From Aeromicrobium terrae (GTDB lineage Bacteria > Actinomycetota > Actinomycetes > Propionibacteriales > Nocardioidaceae), in NCBI RefSeq assembly GCF_008039565.1, contig NZ_VDUX01000004.1, positions 124,001-188,000 on the forward strand: 64,000 nt of DNA. Reading direction: 5' to 3'. Both the position numbers and the translations under genes were made by a program. Under the pieces are notes generated by a model, which was not told the DNA's origin, did no database searches, and saw only the letters and a list, made by a program, of their open reading frames with translations. The first letter of the stretch is position 1; every line of letters begins with the position of its first letter. Below are positions 57,255-64,000 of this stretch, piece after piece.

Positions 57255-57896
57255 CTAAGCAGCGTCGAACCTCCCGCCCAGGACGCGCTTGGCGTTCTCG
57301 AGGGTCACAGGCGATGCGGTCGAGACCGATCCCGAGTCGTACGGAGGCTCAGGGGCGTACTCAATGATGAGTTGGACGGTCTTCGCCACCTCGTCGCCCA
57401 GCATCCGCCCAGACAAGGTGAGAGCAAGATCGATCCCCGCGGACACTCCTGCTGCGGACGCGTAGTGCCCGTCGAACACCACCCGCTCGTGCGACGGCGT
57501 CACGCCGAAGGCGGGCAGCTGGTCGAGCGCGCCCCAGTGCGAGGTCGCCGACCTTCCCTTCAGTAGGCCCGTAGCAGCCATGATGAGCGTGCCCGTGCAC
57601 ACGGAGGTCGTCCATGTGCTCGTACGGTCGACCGTTCGCAGCCATTCGTGGAGCCTGCCGTCGGCCATGTTGGCGCGTTGGCCGGGCCCACCGCCGATCA
57701 GGACGACGTCCGGGTTCGTCACGTCGTCCAGGCCGTTGACCACGTTGACGGAAACCCCCTTCAGGTCGTTGACGATAGCGCCGGGGTTCTCGGCGACGAA
57801 CACGACGTCCGTCTCGGGGAGGCGGGCGAACACCTCGTACGGGCCCATCACATCCAGCGAGGTGAAGTCGGGGTAGAGGGCGATGGCGACCTGCAT
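57255..57896 (-). CDS. DJ-1/PfpI family protein (isonitrile hydratase-like)
   Basis: 213 residues. IALYPDFTSLDVMGPYEVFARLP is the family start, and the nucleophile Cys100 lies in TTSVCTGTLIMAATGLLKGRSATSHW, as in isonitrile hydratases and glutamine-amidotransferase-like regulators; no DNA-binding domain is attached. GGAGAA precedes the ATG. It lies 58 bp after the ABC permease on the same strand, last in the cluster. Reaction here is not certain. Confidence 0.85.
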   Translation of the reverse strand: MQVAIALYPDFTSLDVMGPYEVFARLPETDVVFVAENPGAIVNDLKGVSVNVVNGLDDVTNPDVVLIGGGPGQRANMADGRLHEWLRTVDRTSTWTTSVCTGTLIMAATGLLKGRSATSHWGALDQLPAFGVTPSHERVVFDGHYASAAGVSAGIDLALTLSGRMLGDEVAKTVQLIIEYAPEPPYDSGSVSTASPVTLENAKRVLGGRFDAA

Positions 57897-57954
57897 GATG
57901 GTTCTCCGATCGAATCGAGGTCAGATGTGACGGTGGCTGGTGAGAAGCGAGGCG

Positions 57955-58998
57955 TCAGCGCTTGCGGAAGATGCGCTCGCGACGAAGGTGGTCGACGGCG
58001 ACGGCGCTGACGAGGATCGTCCCGATGACGATGCTGTTGTACTGGGGTGGGATCTCCGACAGGACCAGGGCGTTGTCGATGAGGGACAGGAGCAGTGCGC
58101 CGATCGCGACGCCTTGGATCGAGCCCATTCCTCCCATCAGGCTGATTCCGCCGATTAGAACGGCGGTGATGACAATCAGGGTCGTGCCCGTCCCACCGGC
58201 GGTCACCTGCCCGGCACCGACGCGAGCCGAGTAGACGATGCCAGCGAGCCCGGCCGTGACGGCTGCCAGGACGTACAGGGCGAGGTCGATGCGCGTGACC
58301 CGCAGGCCGTTGGCGACCGCGGCCTGGCGGTTCCCGCCCAGGGCGCGGACATTCACGCCGAACCGGGTCCACTCAAGCAGGAACCAGAACAGCAGGCCCA
58401 CTGCGATGGCGATGAGGACGACGTTGGGGACTCCCAGGATGCTGCCCTGGCCGATGTCCTGCACGACCTGCGGCAGCGGCAGCACGTCGTTGCCGCCGGT
58501 GACCAGGTTGTCCACGCCCGTGAGCATGTAGAACACGCCCAGCGTCGCGATGATCGGTGGCACGTGCCAGTAGGTGATGACCAGGTGGTTGAGAACACCG
58601 ATCAGCGCTGCGAGTGCAATCCCGCCCAGCACCGCGAGAGGCCAAGGCACCGAGGACACCAGCATCTTGCTCGTCATCAGGGCAGAGAGGGTGAAGACCG
58701 CTCCGGCCGAGAAGTCCAGGCCGCCGCCGATGATCAGCATCGCCGCGCCGCAGCCCATCACGAAGTAGATGACAGAGCTGCGGAAGATCTCGGTGATGTT
58801 GTCCTCGCTGAGGAACAGGTCGGACTTGATCGACGCGGCCGCGCCGATCACCAGGATCACCATGACCAGCGTGGTCTCCTGACGCGCCATGACACTGCGC
58901 AGCCGGTCTCGTCGTGACCTCTTGTCGTCCACGTGAGGCGCCTCCCTGGGGTTCTCGGTCTGGGCGGTACGTCCTGGGCGTGACATCACGGTGCTCAT
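57955..58998 (-). CDS. Sugar-type ABC transporter permease (RbsC/XylH family)
   Basis: 347 residues with about ten hydrophobic segments. AAMLIIGGGLDFSAGAVFTLSA and ALGGNRQAAVANGLRVTRIDLALYVLAA are the family's conserved permease blocks. The N-terminal 40 residues are polar and basic. The ATG shares a base with the ATPase stop (TGATG). It forms the membrane channel for the binding proteins encoded next to it. Confidence 0.92.
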   Translation of the reverse strand: MSTVMSRPGRTAQTENPREAPHVDDKRSRRDRLRSVMARQETTLVMVILVIGAAASIKSDLFLSEDNITEIFRSSVIYFVMGCGAAMLIIGGGLDFSAGAVFTLSALMTSKMLVSSVPWPLAVLGGIALAALIGVLNHLVITYWHVPPIIATLGVFYMLTGVDNLVTGGNDVLPLPQVVQDIGQGSILGVPNVVLIAIAVGLLFWFLLEWTRFGVNVRALGGNRQAAVANGLRVTRIDLALYVLAAVTAGLAGIVYSARVGAGQVTAGGTGTTLIVITAVLIGGISLMGGMGSIQGVAIGALLLSLIDNALVLSEIPPQYNSIVIGTILVSAVAVDHLRRERIFRKR

Positions 58999-59771
58999 CA
59001 CGCGACCTCCGTCGTCACGGTGTCGCCCGCGATCGCACCGGTGATCAGGCCGACGACGTCGGCTCGCGTGGTGTCGGCGACGAGTCTCGAACCCACCGTC
59101 CGTCCGAGGCGCAGCACCGTCACACGGTCGGCGTGCTTGAACACGAAGTCGAGGTCGTGACTGACGCAGATCACGGCCTTGCCCGCGGCCCGGAGCCCAT
59201 CGATGATCTCGCCGACGTGCGCGGTCTCCTGAACACCGAGAGCCGCGGTGGGCTCGTCGAGCAGGATGAGCGGCTTGTCCATTCGGACGGCACGCGCGAT
59301 CGCGACCACCTGACGCTGGCCTCCGGAGAGCAGCCCGACCGGCGTACGGACGTCGCCGACCCGCACCTTGAGCTCGCGCAGCACCTGAGCGGCATCCCGC
59401 TCCATGCGCTTGCGGTCGAGCACCATGCCGAGCTTCCGCGGAAGGTTGCCGAGCGCCATGTTCTGCGCGATGTCCAGGCACTCGACGAGTGCGAGGTCCT
59501 GGTAGACCACGGACACTCCGCGCTCCTTCGTGTCCGCCGCCGAGCGGCGCAGGGCCATCCGCCGGCCCTGCATCATGATCTCCCCGTCGTCGGCCTCGTG
59601 GATGCCGGTGATGATCTTGATCGCGGTCGACTTCCCGGCACCGTTGTCGCCGACGACCGCGTGCACCTCCCCGGCATACGCATCGAGCGCCAGATCCTCG
59701 AGCGCCATGACGGACCCGAAGAACTTCGACACGCCCCTGAGACGCAGCACAGGAGTCTGTTCATCACCCAT
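58998..59771 (-). CDS. Sugar-type ABC transporter ATPase, single domain
   Basis: 257 residues from the ATG at 59771. Walker A GDNGAGKST (41-49), signature LSGGQRQ (148-154) and Walker B LILLDEPT (168-175) are intact. RbsA/XylG proteins usually have two fused ATPase domains of about 500 residues; this has one, so it should act as a homodimer. It overlaps both neighbours by one base. Confidence 0.92.
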   Translation of the reverse strand: MGDEQTPVLRLRGVSKFFGSVMALEDLALDAYAGEVHAVVGDNGAGKSTAIKIITGIHEADDGEIMMQGRRMALRRSAADTKERGVSVVYQDLALVECLDIAQNMALGNLPRKLGMVLDRKRMERDAAQVLRELKVRVGDVRTPVGLLSGGQRQVVAIARAVRMDKPLILLDEPTAALGVQETAHVGEIIDGLRAAGKAVICVSHDLDFVFKHADRVTVLRLGRTVGSRLVADTTRADVVGLITGAIAGDTVTTEVA

Positions 59772-60754
59772 CAGACCCAGCCTTTCGCGATGTAGGCCTT
59801 CACCTCGTCCTTGTCGACCACTGCCACCTTGACAGGAACCGGGGCCGCCTTCTTGCCCTCTGCAACATCGAGGACGCCGTCGAGGATGTCCTTGCCGAGA
59901 CCGCACACGTCCTGCATGACGGCCGACCGCGCGGTGCCGTTGGACAGAGCCTCGGCGCCTCCGTTGTCCTCGCCGATGACCACGATGAAGGTCTTGCCGA
60001 CGCGATCCTTGGCCTTGATCGCCGCAGCCGCTCCCGGCGTGACGGTGCCCATGTGCGTGGCGATGTCCGTGATGTCGGGGTGCGCGGTCAGCAGGGCATT
60101 GACCTGTGGCAGGGCCTTGGCGGCGTCGTCGCCCGTGTAGACCTCACCGGCGATCTTGACGTTGTCGTACTTCTTGACGGCACCCTTCACGCCGTCCATC
60201 CACGCCTTGCCGAGGTCGGTGTTGGAGGCCGCCACGAGGCCCACGACGTGCTCGCCCGGCTTGTTGGCGATGCCACCGATGATCGCGTCACCGAGGGCCC
60301 CGAAGTCCGGACCGGCGTTGACGTCGGCGCCGCTCTCCGGCCCACCCGGGCCGTACAGCGTTCCGGTCACGATGCCCTTGGACTGAGCCTGCTTGAGGAG
60401 CGGCGTGAACGCCTCGCTCATCGGCATCGTGACGATGCCGTCGACCTTGTTCGCGATCGCCTGCTGCAGCTTCTGGATCATGGCGCTCGGATCGTCACCC
60501 GAGCCGCTCGGCCCGGACTCCTGCAGCTTCACCGACCGCTTGTCGGCCTCGTCCTTCATGCAGTCGCCCAGCGTGCGCCATGAAGGGTACTTCGGCAGCG
60601 GGTTGACGAACTGGACCGTGTCGGCCTTGCCGCCCGCGGCGTCGCTCGAGCCGTCGTCGCTGTCGGTCGAGCACGCCGCTGCTGCGGCGAGCAGAACCGC
60701 GGCTGGGACGACGGCGGCGACGGGGAACCGGGCCCGGATGGATGTGCGTGACAT
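59771..60754 (-). CDS. Sugar-type ABC substrate-binding lipoprotein (copy 1)
   Basis: 327 residues from the ATG at 60754. Lipobox LAAAAAC gives a lipidated Cys28, followed by a Ser/Asp linker and a periplasmic-binding-protein type I fold (VQFVNPLPKYPSWRTLGDCMKDEADK; NKVDGIVTMPMSEAFTPLLKQAQSKGI). It is directly coupled to the ATPase and permease. Copy 2 at 61759-62754 is a close paralogue. Confidence 0.9.
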   Translation of the reverse strand: MSRTSIRARFPVAAVVPAAVLLAAAAACSTDSDDGSSDAAGGKADTVQFVNPLPKYPSWRTLGDCMKDEADKRSVKLQESGPSGSGDDPSAMIQKLQQAIANKVDGIVTMPMSEAFTPLLKQAQSKGIVTGTLYGPGGPESGADVNAGPDFGALGDAIIGGIANKPGEHVVGLVAASNTDLGKAWMDGVKGAVKKYDNVKIAGEVYTGDDAAKALPQVNALLTAHPDITDIATHMGTVTPGAAAAIKAKDRVGKTFIVVIGEDNGGAEALSNGTARSAVMQDVCGLGKDILDGVLDVAEGKKAAPVPVKVAVVDKDEVKAYIAKGWV

Positions 60755-60785
60755 GGATGAATACCTCCTGATGTGGACCCCGGCG

Positions 60786-61754
60786 TCAGGCCGCGGCGTG
60801 TCCCCGATGGATGAGATCGTTGATGGTCTGCGTGAGCCGGGAGAAGGCGCGGTCGGCGGACGGGACCCGGGGCGCGAAGTCGATCCAGCCATGGACCAGT
60901 TCTGGGTCGACCTGCACCGTCACCTCTATGCCGGCCGCCTCGAGGCGGCGCCCGAACTTCTGCTCCGAGGAGCGCAGTGGGTCGTGTCCGGCGACTGCCA
61001 GGACCGTGGGTGGTAGCTCACCCAGCCACTTCGCGTGACCCGGAAGGACGTACGGCGAACGACGCGCCTGCACCGTTCCCAGATACATCCGCAGGTAGTA
61101 GGCGAGGTCGTCTCGGGTGATCCGCGGACCGTCCCGGTACGTCTGCATGCTCGGAGCATCCAGGTCGTCGTCGACGACCGGGTAGACGAGCACCTGGCCG
61201 TCGATGCGAGGTCCACCGTCGTCCCGCGCCGTCAGTGCGACGCACGCTGCCAGCGTCGCGCCCGCGCTGTCGCCGGCGACGAGGAAAGGGAGATCCGGCC
61301 GGAGCCGAGCGGCCCACGTCGTGGCGTCCCATGCGTCCTGGAGAGCAGCGGGGAACGGATGCTCCGGCATGAGCCTGTAGTCGACCGAGACCACGACGGA
61401 TTGGGTGTCACGGCAGATCCGTCGTGCGACGAGATCGTGGGTGTCGAGGTCCCCGACCACCCAACCCCCGCCATGGAGGTACACCATGACGGCGGCGGGG
61501 CGGGCGGGCGTGTAGATCCGCGCCGGGATCGACCCGGCACCGCCCGGCACGTGCTCGTCCGTGACGCGGTCGACCGCGATCGGTGCGGCACCGTGGGTGA
61601 AGACGGAGACGGCGTCACGCATGGACTGACGCAGCTCGACGGTGCTCAGCTCGGCCACGGGGACGGGCGGGCCGAGCTCGGCCAGCAGCGCCGTGACGTC
61701 GCGATCGACAGACGTCTCGGCCACAGTGCCCGTCATGCTCGGCCCGCCGGTCAT
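60786..61754 (-). CDS. HSL-family alpha/beta hydrolase (copy 1)
   Basis: 322 residues (an ATG at 61736 would shorten it by 6). The oxyanion motif HGGGW is at 94-98 and the nucleophile Ser163 is in GDSAG; a late histidine is in DPELVHGWIDFAP. Hormone-sensitive-lipase-type enzymes cleave carboxylic esters. It lies between the two binding-protein genes and is paralogous to 62781-63725. Confidence 0.9.
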   Translation of the reverse strand: MTGGPSMTGTVAETSVDRDVTALLAELGPPVPVAELSTVELRQSMRDAVSVFTHGAAPIAVDRVTDEHVPGGAGSIPARIYTPARPAAVMVYLHGGGWVVGDLDTHDLVARRICRDTQSVVVSVDYRLMPEHPFPAALQDAWDATTWAARLRPDLPFLVAGDSAGATLAACVALTARDDGGPRIDGQVLVYPVVDDDLDAPSMQTYRDGPRITRDDLAYYLRMYLGTVQARRSPYVLPGHAKWLGELPPTVLAVAGHDPLRSSEQKFGRRLEAAGIEVTVQVDPELVHGWIDFAPRVPSADRAFSRLTQTINDLIHRGHAAA

Positions 61755-61758
61755 CAGA

Positions 61759-62754
61759 TCAGCTCCAGCCCTTGTCGAGGTAGCCCTGAACCTCGTCCTG
61801 GGGGACCACGGCGACGTGGATCGGGATCGACGCCGCCGGCTTGCCCTCGGCGGTGTCGACGATCCCGTCGATCATGTCCTTGCCGAGGCCGCAGTTGTCC
61901 TGCAGGAGGATCAACCTGGACGTCCCACCCTGGATCGACTCCAGGCCACCGTTGTCGTGACCGCCGGCGACGAGGAACGTCTTTCCCACGAGCTTCTTCG
62001 CCTTGATCGCCGCGACGGCACCTGGCGTCACGGTGCCCATGTGGGTCGCGATGTCGGTGACGTCCGGATGCGCGGTCAGCAGGGCATTGACCTGCGGGAG
62101 TGCCTTGGCGGCGTCGTCGCCGGTGTAGACCTCACCGGCGACCTTCACGTTGTCCGTCTTCTTCACGGCGGCCTTGACGCCGTCGAGCCATGCCTTGCCC
62201 AGCCCGGTATCGGCTTGGGCGACCAGACCCAGGACGTGCTGGCCAGGAATCTTGGAGATCGCCGTGATGATCGTCTCCCCGATCGCCGTGAAGTCCGGTC
62301 CGGCGTTGACGTCCGCACCGCCGTCACTCCCACCGGTACCGAACAACGTGCCGGTCAGGATGCCCTTCGCCTGAGCCTGCTTGAGCACCGGCCCGAAGCC
62401 CTCGCTCGCCGGGAACGTGACAATGGCTCCCACCTTGTTGGAGATCGCCTGCTGCACCTGCTGGATCATGGTGCTGGCATCGAGCGCTGATCCGGTCGGT
62501 CCACTCTGCTTGAACGGGACGCCACGCTTGTCCGCCTGGTCGCTCATGCACTGTCCGATCGCCTTCCATGCCGGATAGTTCGGCAGCGGGTTGACGAATT
62601 GGATCGAGCTGAGCTCGCCGCCCTTGGCTTTGTCGCTTGAGCCGCCGTCGCTGTCGGTCGAGCAGCCAGAGGCCGCGACGGCCATAAGTGCGAGCGCCGG
62701 GATGACGCCGGCCATCCGCTTCCGGGTGTGACGCCGGCTGAGGGTGTGAATCAT
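61759..62754 (-). CDS. Sugar-type ABC substrate-binding lipoprotein (copy 2)
   Basis: 331 residues from the ATG at 62754, with AGGAGGAA-like sequence upstream. The lipobox MAVAASGC gives Cys31; CSTDSDGGSSD and IQFVNPLPNYPAWKAIGQCM match copy 1 closely, as do EVYTGDDAAKALPQVNALLTAHPD and the following ten residues. It has no own permease, so it probably shares the single transporter. Confidence 0.9.
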   Translation of the reverse strand: MIHTLSRRHTRKRMAGVIPALALMAVAASGCSTDSDGGSSDKAKGGELSSIQFVNPLPNYPAWKAIGQCMSDQADKRGVPFKQSGPTGSALDASTMIQQVQQAISNKVGAIVTFPASEGFGPVLKQAQAKGILTGTLFGTGGSDGGADVNAGPDFTAIGETIITAISKIPGQHVLGLVAQADTGLGKAWLDGVKAAVKKTDNVKVAGEVYTGDDAAKALPQVNALLTAHPDVTDIATHMGTVTPGAVAAIKAKKLVGKTFLVAGGHDNGGLESIQGGTSRLILLQDNCGLGKDMIDGIVDTAEGKPAASIPIHVAVVPQDEVQGYLDKGWS

Positions 62755-62780
62755 GGTTCCTCCTGGTGTGGGTCTCGGCG

Positions 62781-63725
62781 TCATGCCGAAGCGATGCCCC
62801 GATGGATCAGCTCGTGAATGCTCGTGGTCAGGCGCGCGAAGGCCCGGTCCGCCGCTGGGACGCGGGGCGCAAAGTCGAACCAGGCGTGCACGAGCTCGAG
62901 GTCGAGCTGGACGGTCACCGGCACGCCGGCCGCTTGCAGCCGCTCCGCGTACGCCTCCTCCGACGACCTCAGCCGGTCGTGCCCCGCGATCGCGATGACC
63001 GCGGGCGGCAGACCGGCCAGGGACTCGGCCCGGGCCGGCAACGCGTATGGCGATCCGGCCGCAGCCTCCGTTCCGGCGTACTGGTCGATGAAGAAGCGCA
63101 GATCCTCGCGGGAGTTCGGGACGTCGTCGCTGAGCTCCACCATGCTCGGTGCGTCGTAGTCGTCGTCGATGCCCGGATAGATCAGCACCTGCCCGTCGAT
63201 CCGGGGGCCGCCCTCGTCACGAGACCGCAGAGCGGCGCACGTGGCGAGCGTGCCTCCGGCGCTGTCCCCGGCGACGAGGACCGGAAGGTTGGGGAACCGC
63301 TCGACCGCCCAGACGATCGCGTCGTACGTGTCGTCGATCGGCGCGGGGAAGGGGTTCTCCGGGATCATGCGATAGTCGACCGACACCACGACCGACCGAG
63401 TGTCGTGGCAGAGCCGGCGCATCGCGACGTCGGACATGTCGAGACTCCCGGTCATCCACGCGCCACCGTGCATGAAGACGATCAGTGCGGCAGGCGTCTC
63501 GGCGTTGTACACCCGGACCGGGATCTTGCCATCGCGGCCTGGGACCACCTCGTCGGTGACGCCGTGCACGGAGAGCGGTGTGACACCCTCGGTGAAGTAC
63601 GCCATGGCTTCGCGCCCGGCTTGGCGATGCTGCTCGGGCGTGAGGTCGGCTGCGGCGACCTGCTCGGGCGGCGCGAGCTCCGACAGGAGCTCGACGACAT
63701 CCGGATCGATCGGTACCTCGTTCAT
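62781..63725 (-). CDS. HSL-family alpha/beta hydrolase (copy 2)
   Basis: 314 residues from the ATG at 63725. HGGAW at 86-90 and GDSAGG with Ser155 give the HSL active site; LELVHAWFDFAPRVPAADRAF closes the triad and matches copy 1. Its ATG overlaps the stop of the upstream dehydrogenase gene (ATGA), so it is translated with it. Confidence 0.9.
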   Translation of the reverse strand: MNEVPIDPDVVELLSELAPPEQVAAADLTPEQHRQAGREAMAYFTEGVTPLSVHGVTDEVVPGRDGKIPVRVYNAETPAALIVFMHGGAWMTGSLDMSDVAMRRLCHDTRSVVVSVDYRMIPENPFPAPIDDTYDAIVWAVERFPNLPVLVAGDSAGGTLATCAALRSRDEGGPRIDGQVLIYPGIDDDYDAPSMVELSDDVPNSREDLRFFIDQYAGTEAAAGSPYALPARAESLAGLPPAVIAIAGHDRLRSSEEAYAERLQAAGVPVTVQLDLELVHAWFDFAPRVPAADRAFARLTTSIHELIHRGIASA

Positions 63726-64000
63726 GCTGCTCCTCCAGGGCGGATCGCGATCTTGAGTCCCGCGCCGTCGCGGAACGTCTGCACGGCACCGCCGTACGCG
63801 GCGAGCGAGAAGTCGTGGGTCACCATGGGGGCGAGCTTCTCGTCGCCCCAGGTCTGAGCCAGCCGGTGCGCCCGGTCGAAGCTGTTGTGGACCGCCATGC
63901 TGCCGACCACCGTGATCTCGTTGCGGTACACGTCGAACGGTCGAAGCTTGACGATGGCGTCGGGCTCCGCGACGCCGAAGCACTGCAGCACACCGCCACG
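63722..64000 (-). CDS. Zinc-type (MDR) alcohol dehydrogenase, C-terminal part only
   Basis: About 92 residues are visible and the frame stays open to the window edge, so the N-terminus with the zinc ligands lies outside. GGVLQCFGVAEPDAIVKLRPFDVYRNEITVVGSMAVHNSFDRAHRLA is the MDR segment after the Rossmann fold. It would oxidise an alcohol or polyol. It is the first visible gene of the ABC-hydrolase cluster, and coupling to the hydrolase suggests a pathway ester to alcohol to ketone. Confidence 0.8.
   Translation of the reverse strand, partial: RGGVLQCFGVAEPDAIVKLRPFDVYRNEITVVGSMAVHNSFDRAHRLAQTWGDEKLAPMVTHDFSLAAYGGAVQTFRDGAGLKIAIRPGGAA

What the first reader, a model, noticed from the sequence alone, without database searches (positions are those of the whole stretch)
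57255..64000. ABC importer with duplicated binding-protein/esterase pairs
One permease and one single-domain ATPase serve two tandem binding proteins, each paired with an HSL-type esterase, plus an MDR dehydrogenase and a DJ-1 protein. The duplication suggests two related ester ligands taken up by one channel. I know of no described system with this layout.
Basis: partly seen in the sequence, partly recalled or inferred. Interest (0 to 1): 0.6.

Follow-up and report, generated by a model that had tools for sequence, protein, structure and literature searches.

The report
Ester importer with built-in esterases
A rare actinobacterial gene cassette that appears to import a small ester through a sugar-type transporter and cut it inside the cell; the window holds an unusual version with two binding proteins and two esterases next to genes that suggest amino-acid and sugar-alcohol breakdown.

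Summary
On the minus strand at 57255-64000 lie MDR (3' end), EST1, SBP1, EST2, SBP2, ATPase, permease and DJ-1, tightly packed. Beyond the window I found the missing regulator (DeoR) and, on the same strand, a D-aminoacylase-type amidohydrolase, a D-amino-acid dehydrogenase, RidA and a 2-oxoacid dehydrogenase.

The coupling is a sparse but real family: 21 of 21 compared loci carry an HSL esterase near this SBP-ATPase-permease set. In 17 genomes an HSL gene lies within 5 kb of 19 of 19 family SBPs but of 4 of 150 listed other SBPs. Among these 21 loci only the window's has two SBPs side by side; two esterases occur in 11.

Best reading: import of a small O-acyl ester of a polyol or sugar, then cytoplasmic hydrolysis. 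Twelve other loci add a polyol dehydrogenase, six of them a fructokinase-like kinase. The window's clade adds N-acyl-D-amino-acid catabolism and an isonitrile-hydratase-like DJ-1. The SBP pocket lacks most ribose contacts, which is suggestive only. Ligand unproven. Most novel reading: use of fungal isocyanide or N-formylvaline mannitol esters.

The parts
57255..57896 (-). DJ-1/PfpI protein, closest solved relatives are isonitrile (isocyanide) hydratase InhA
   Evidence: (150 bits to 6ni5; 113 to uncharacterised 3ewn)
57955..58998 (-). CUT2-type permease (BPD_transp_2)
58998..59771 (-). single-domain CUT2-type ATPase, 257 aa, matches only the first half of the ~500-residue CUT2 profiles
59771..60754 (-). 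SBP2, lipoprotein-type binding protein (Peripla_BP_4)
60786..61754 (-). EST2, HSL-type esterase (Abhydrolase_3), triad motifs intact
61759..62754 (-). SBP1, lipoprotein-type binding protein; ribosome-site-like AGGAGG and ATG at 62754 rather than the ORF start at 62784
62781..63725 (-). EST1, HSL-type esterase, triad motifs intact (S155, D250, H280)
63722..64000 (-). 3' end of MDR zinc dehydrogenase; gene continues to L009 8227 beyond the window

Best explanation
A catabolic cassette that scavenges a small ester. A lipoprotein binding protein with an altered pocket captures an O-acyl ester of a polyol or sugar; a CUT2-type permease and single-domain ATPase (each acting as a homodimer) bring it in whole; a cytoplasmic HSL-type esterase cleaves it. 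The alcohol part is oxidised (MDR here, a long-chain polyol dehydrogenase in other loci) and phosphorylated (fructokinase-like PfkB kinase). In the window's clade the acyl part is probably an N-acyl amino acid, deacylated by the D-aminoacylase-type enzyme, oxidised by the FAD dehydrogenase with RidA, and fed as a 2-oxo acid to the E1/E2 complex. Two SBP/esterase pairs would widen the range of esters handled. Shown: gene content, intact active-site motifs, conserved linkage, changed pocket residues. Inferred: the ester ligand, cytoplasmic location, order of steps and the second pair's role.
For: HSL esterase near the SBP-ATPase-permease set in 21 of 21 compared loci; 32 of 32 esterases have the HGG, G-x-SAG, Asp and His motifs. 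Enrichment 19/19 vs 4/150 within 5 kb. Esterases show no hydrophobic N-terminus (max Kyte-Doolittle 1.33 in 32, cut at the profile envelope; three SBPs 1.84-2.48). Polyol-dehydrogenase-family gene in 12 of 21 loci, PfkB kinase in 6 of 21, and a fructokinase-like kinase 7-9 kb beyond the amidohydrolase in the congener G034 and the window genome. SBP pocket at recalled ribose contacts, 21 family SBPs: N13 is Y in 20, D89 is F/Y in 20, R90 is G in 20, R141 is W/F in 21, N190 is M/L in 18, F16 is W and Q235 is Q in 21. D-aminoacylase-type orthologues of at least 69% identity occur in 3 of 17 genomes, all at the locus, and in the two Streptomyces plasmid loci viewed. D-amino-acid-dehydrogenase-like oxidase in L009, L014, L015, L018.
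Against: No ligand or activity is known for any member. Loss of the RbsB contacts does not prove a non-sugar ligand: of two other SBPs in this genome one keeps 8 of 13 RbsB letters, the other only 2. The amidohydrolase is absent within 10 kb in both Umezawaea genomes, which have only 54-55% relatives elsewhere. A close MDR is shared only with the congener G034 among the 21 loci. HSL esterases are promiscuous, so the esterase could act on something made inside. In this genome the upstream amino-acid genes could be a separate unit (about 200 bases between DeoR and MDR). One of the 32 esterases (L020) stops early, just after the His motif.
Confidence: 0.5

Rival explanations
1. Two modules side by side: a polyol or sugar importer whose esterases only remove small protecting acyl groups such as acetyl, and an unrelated N-acyl-D-amino-acid pathway that happens to share the neighbourhood.
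For: The twelve polyol-dehydrogenase loci have no close D-aminoacylase-type gene, so the importer works without it; about 200 bases between DeoR and MDR in the window genome; in the congener G034 an allantoate-amidohydrolase-like gene and a threonine degradation pair lie between the amidohydrolase and the PucR and DeoR genes.
Against: In the Streptomyces plasmid locus L015 the oxidase, amidohydrolase and DJ-1 follow the esterase on the same strand; L014 is the same with a TnpB gene on the other strand in between. In Actinoplanes the amidohydrolase follows the esterase, in G034 the permease.
Confidence: 0.25
2. Use of D-aminoacyl polyols, for example D-alanyl-polyol fragments from teichoic acid turnover: esterase releases D-alanine and polyol, the oxidase turns D-alanine into pyruvate, the E1/E2 complex into acetyl-CoA.
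For: Combines ester, D-amino-acid dehydrogenase and polyol genes; the best NCBIfam model of E1-alpha is pyruvate dehydrogenase (395 bits, cut-off 411), while solved pyruvate and branched-chain enzymes tie at 189 bits. The teichoic acid chemistry is recalled; the one search for it showed no relevant paper among the 8 of 217 listed.
Against: Does not need an N-acyl-D-amino-acid deacylase or an isonitrile-hydratase-like protein; D-alanyl esters hydrolyse readily on their own (recalled); hydrophobic pocket residues do not suit a charged ligand (inference).
Confidence: 0.1
3. Plain sugar or polyol importer with esterases expressed for another purpose.
For: Fold is an ordinary CUT2 binding protein (Z up to 29.6), the best annotated profiles are sugar ones, and another SBP of this genome, near a xylose-isomerase-like ORF, also keeps few RbsB contacts (2 of 13).
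Against: Linkage 21 of 21 loci and 19/19 vs 4/150; ribose-contact residues replaced mostly by aromatic or aliphatic ones.
Confidence: 0.1

Closest known systems
CUT2 (carbohydrate uptake 2) ABC importers such as RbsABC; single-domain-ATPase examples such as FrcBCA (recalled)
   Same: Peripla_BP_4 binding protein, BPD_transp_2 permease, CUT2-type ATPase; fold matches arabinose, glucose-galactose, ribose and AI-2 binders
   Different: HSL esterases in every compared locus; ribose-contact residues replaced; ATPase is one domain, as two other ORFs of this genome that look like CUT2 ATPases also are (no family search run on those)
HSL family (family IV) carboxylesterases, e.g. carboxylesterase EST2 (1qz3) and the LipP1 model
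   Same: EST1 scores 157 bits to 1qz3 over residues 5-305; triad motifs intact
   Different: Below the LipP1 cut-off (274 and 284 of 350 bits); linked to an importer; in the window's clade 8 of 9 esterases have A or S at the fourth position of HGGG
Isonitrile (isocyanide) hydratase InhA
   Same: Best solved match over 200 residues; Asp, Cys-Thr and the C-terminal Pro-Pro/Gly-Ser signature kept
   Different: Activity untested; the same Asp and Cys-Thr occur in an FtrA-type regulator
D-aminoacylase / N-acyl-D-glutamate deacylase
   Same: Closest solved relatives of the linked amidohydrolase, 119 and 112 bits
   Different: Best NCBIfam model is a subfamily named only 'amidohydrolase family protein' (NF006560, 608 bits)
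Fungal fumicicolins, heterocicolins and brassicicolin A (PMC9381783, passages read)
   Same: Their parts (mannitol ester, N-formylvaline or isocyanide acyl group, acetyl and 2-hydroxyisovaleryl esters) map onto the linked enzyme classes
   Different: They are compounds, not a degradation system; the valine part is (S), whereas the linked deacylase and oxidase resemble D-specific enzymes

Membership tests
CUT2 ABC importer | Peripla_BP_4 SBP, BPD_transp_2 permease and CUT2-type ATPase in one operon | tested here: met
   tight same-strand packing, co-transcription not tested
CUT2 ABC importer | ATPase with two fused nucleotide-binding domains (usual form) | tested here: not met
   257 aa, aligns to about residues 1-245 of ~500-residue profiles; the single-domain form is a known variant (recalled)
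CUT2 ABC importer | Sugar-contact residues as in RbsB | tested here: not met
   1 of 13 letters kept in SBP1 and SBP2 (contact list recalled); another SBP of the genome keeps 2 of 13, so the test is weak
HSL (family IV) esterase | Abhydrolase_3 domain, HGG and G-x-SAG motifs, Asp and His | tested here: met
Isonitrile hydratase InhA | Catalytic Cys and Asp in the InhA subfamily of DJ-1 | tested here: inconclusive
   residues kept but not specific
Isonitrile hydratase InhA | Hydration of isonitriles | not testable with these tools
   needs an assay
D-aminoacylase | Sequence relation to solved D-aminoacylases | tested here: met
D-aminoacylase | D-specific deacylation | not testable with these tools
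   needs an assay
Fumicicolin-type ester degradation | Growth on or clearance of mannitol esters of N-formylvaline or valine isocyanide | not testable with these tools
   needs an assay

The most novel reading that the evidence does not exclude
The window's clade takes up and degrades fungal valine-isocyanide (or N-formylvaline) esters of mannitol or a hexose, the fumicicolin, heterocicolin and brassicicolin type: SBPs and importer bring in partly acylated mannitol, the two esterases remove isocyanoacyl or N-formylvalyl and the acetyl or hydroxyisovaleryl groups, the DJ-1 protein hydrates the isocyanide to N-formylvaline, the D-aminoacylase-type enzyme deformylates it, the FAD oxidase with RidA and the E1/E2 complex take valine to isobutyryl-CoA, and the polyol goes through MDR and the kinase. 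It would be a dedicated bacterial pathway for eating or disarming a fungal antibiotic class. Against it: the (S) configuration reported for the fungal valine part beside D-type enzymes here, and an E1-alpha no closer to branched-chain than to pyruvate enzymes.
Probability: 0.1. Interest if true: 0.85.

Novelty: new variant of a known kind. Interest (0 to 1): 0.5.

Why it matters
It marks a sparse actinobacterial family of importers whose esterase partner travels with them, on chromosomes and on linear Streptomyces plasmids, with a binding pocket that has lost most ribose-contact residues. Finding the ligand would define a new substrate class for CUT2 importers. If it proves to be an acylated polyol of fungal origin, it would give a concrete chemical link between soil fungi and actinobacteria that can be tested with compounds already synthesised (PMC9381783).

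Tried and rejected
Two ligands from a recent tandem duplication: rejected as recent. Fourfold sites are 62 of 124 (SBP) and 52 of 118 (EST) identical, with no strongly converted patch. The stretch between esterase and SBP is alike at both pairs, which suggests a block duplication; but the trees disagree: the SBPs are sisters (82/68), the esterases are not (98/95 against). Neither alternative is rejected (AU p 0.112 and 0.066), so the history is open.

Large fatty-acid polyol esters (liamocin, PEFA type; search listing only): set aside because they are large for this binding-protein class (inference).

Shared operator: no convincing palindrome common to the promoters of the window genome and G034.

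E1-alpha as proof of branched-chain acid use: not borne out.

DJ-1 counts: the 39% hits in L017 and beside the esterase in L025 were not counted as InhA-like; the L017 one is an FtrA-type regulator by its family match, the L025 one was not scanned. The 39-41% relatives beside L046 and L047 look InhA-like in the alignment but were left out of the clade count.

A published description: none seen in searches. These cover an open-access library, several listings were capped (for example 12 of 184, 8 of 217), and I saw titles and abstract starts only, plus passages of PMC9381783.

Limits of the survey: control rows are the listed ones (150 of 238 Peripla_BP_4, 150 of 159 HSL); loci of close relatives are not independent; genome searches score few candidates per genome, so counts are lower bounds; the genome-contig scan used two short peptide patterns; of 5 plasmid hits I opened 3. 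My own gene calls were rough and used only as a guide.

Change after re-checking: the plain-sugar rival went from 0.07 to 0.1 because a control SBP of the same genome also keeps few RbsB contacts.

Not used: the second structure job, one paper search, three PDB-sequence searches, six family searches, two Foldseek jobs, three VIA-align jobs.
Full report
What is there. On the minus strand the window's last 6.7 kb encode, in transcription order, the end of an MDR zinc dehydrogenase (63722-64000 and beyond), EST1 (62781-63725), SBP1 (61759-62754), EST2 (60786-61754), SBP2 (59771-60754), a single-domain ATPase (58998-59771), a permease (57955-58998) and a DJ-1/PfpI protein (57255-57896). Pfam assigns ADH_N, Abhydrolase_3 (twice), Peripla_BP_4 (twice), ABC_tran, BPD_transp_2 and DJ-1_PfpI. 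SBP1/SBP2 are 66% and EST1/EST2 57% identical.

Beyond the window. The window is G000:C4:124001-188000. L009 continues the contig: complete MDR, a DeoR regulator, then on the same strand E2, E1-beta, E1-alpha, a small ORF without a family match, RidA, a FAD oxidase, a D-aminoacylase-type amidohydrolase, and a divergent PucR regulator (E2 and E1-beta were named from the ORF list, without a family search). The oxidase is closest to D-arginine dehydrogenase (279 bits), the amidohydrolase to D-aminoacylase (119 bits). Further out lie a D-serine-dehydratase-like protein, a branched-chain-type ABC transporter, a creatininase-family protein and a fructokinase-like PfkB kinase.

How widespread. SBP searches found the family in 2 of 58 relatives, window genome included, and only in the window genome among 393 genomes of the class and 246 of the phylum. 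In the families of other members the counts were 5 of 398 (2 were seeds), 2 of 297 (both seeds) and 5 of 300 (2 seeds). Nine loci came from genome contigs and 5 plasmid records, four of Streptomyces and one of Embleya. I compared 21 loci with 22 SBPs.

The esterase belongs to the system. All 21 loci have one or two HSL esterases (32 in all), each with the HGG motif, G-x-SAG nucleophile, Asp and His; one (L020) is cut short by a stop just after the His motif. In 17 genomes an HSL gene lies within 5 kb of 19 of 19 family SBPs and of 4 of 150 listed other Peripla_BP_4 SBPs. Two esterases occur in 11 of 21 loci; two SBPs side by side only in the window genome's locus (one further genome, G440, has two separate loci). 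In several of the two-esterase loci the pair belongs to different subgroups.

Partner genes. Seven loci (window, G034, two Streptomyces plasmids, two Umezawaea, Actinoplanes) form one SBP clade (96/96, which left out the near copy L015). The D-aminoacylase-type gene is in 5 of these 7, a D-amino-acid-dehydrogenase-like oxidase in 4, PucR in 5. An InhA-like DJ-1 is in 5 of 7 stretches, about 8 kb beyond the amidohydrolase in G034, and elsewhere in the genome in Umezawaea endophytica. Twelve other loci carry a polyol-dehydrogenase-family gene (for L022 the best models are fructuronate reductase and D-arabinitol 4-dehydrogenase), six of them with a fructokinase-like kinase. In the SBP tree these twelve are not one group: Embleya falls, with modest support, beside the window's clade. 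The two deepest loci show neither a polyol dehydrogenase nor a close amidohydrolase (L052, a 12-kb stretch, has a 28% partial match; the L048 ATPase matches in two overlapping pieces, perhaps a frameshift).

Binding pocket. The AlphaFold model of SBP1 (mean pLDDT 83.7) is an ordinary CUT2 binding protein: the top rows (Z 29.6 to 29.3, tied) are a glucose-galactose binder, an arabinose binder and two of unstated ligand, with an AI-2 receptor at 28.3. Aligned with E. coli RbsB, SBP1 and SBP2 keep 1 of 13 letters at the sites examined (contacts recalled): N13, D89, R90, R141 and N190 are Y, F/Y, G, W/F and M/L in 20, 20, 20, 21 and 18 of the 21 family SBPs aligned; Q235 is kept in 21. The D215 column shows mostly G, but a conserved Asp lies next to it, so that contact may remain. 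As controls, one other SBP of this genome keeps 8 of 13 and a second only 2 of 13, so the pattern is suggestive, not proof. SBP1 and SBP2 differ at four of these sites, mildly (A/S, F/M, F/Y, G/I). Cysteines 79 and 298 are invariant in 13 of 13 aligned members.

DJ-1. Its nearest solved relatives are isonitrile hydratases (150 bits). Orthologues of at least 60% identity to the Streptomyces protein are found in 5 of 17 genomes, all of the window's clade; 39-41% relatives with InhA-like features lie beside two other loci, L046 and L047. This supports a link but not the activity, since the key residues also occur in an FtrA-type regulator.

Interpretation. The conserved core is importer plus probably cytoplasmic esterase, so the imported molecule is most likely an ester. 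Polyol dehydrogenase and fructokinase-like neighbours make a polyol or sugar the likely alcohol part. In the window's clade the extra genes read as N-acyl-amino-acid to amino acid to 2-oxo acid to acyl-CoA. Fungal fumicicolins A and B are esters of N-formylvaline with D-mannitol or a hexose, fumicicolin C is the isocyanide ester, and heterocicolins add acetyl and 2-hydroxyisovaleryl groups (PMC9381783, passages read). These parts match the enzyme classes well, but the fungal valine is (S) while the linked enzymes resemble D-specific ones, and the E1-alpha is no closer to branched-chain than to pyruvate enzymes; I give this reading 0.1.

Novelty. Nine literature searches (partly capped listings of an open-access library) showed no described system of this layout. 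I file it as a new variant of CUT2 importers: membership by subunits is met, by RbsB-like contacts and two-domain ATPase it is not.

Noticed in passing
L014 5094-20784, L015 3108-17371: The cassette sits on linear Streptomyces plasmids (3 of the 5 plasmid records typed mobilizable) next to an amino-acid ABC transporter and, in L014, a TnpB gene, so it may be exchanged between species.
   Followed up: partly
L054 8914-11282 (G034): Three DJ-1/InhA-like genes side by side; one has Ser in place of the catalytic Cys.
   Followed up: partly
L055 1008-9085 (window contig, beyond the window): D-serine-dehydratase-like protein, branched-chain-type ABC transporter, creatininase-family protein and PfkB kinase upstream of the PucR gene: the locus may be part of a larger catabolic island.
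   Followed up: partly
G446:C11:139912-145471; G650:C1:441692-446534; G820:C1:3310490-3315438: Other Peripla_BP_4 binding proteins with an HSL esterase within 5 kb: possible independent cases of importer-esterase coupling.
   Followed up: no
L009 12604-12960: Small ORF between E1-alpha and RidA with no Pfam or NCBIfam match at the thresholds used.
   Followed up: no
SBP1 residues 79 and 298 (and equivalents): Two cysteines invariant in 13 of 13 aligned family SBPs, perhaps a disulfide.
   Followed up: no
L052 (G440:C127) and L019 (G440:C31): Rugosimonospora carries two separate copies of the cassette, the second very divergent.
   Followed up: partly
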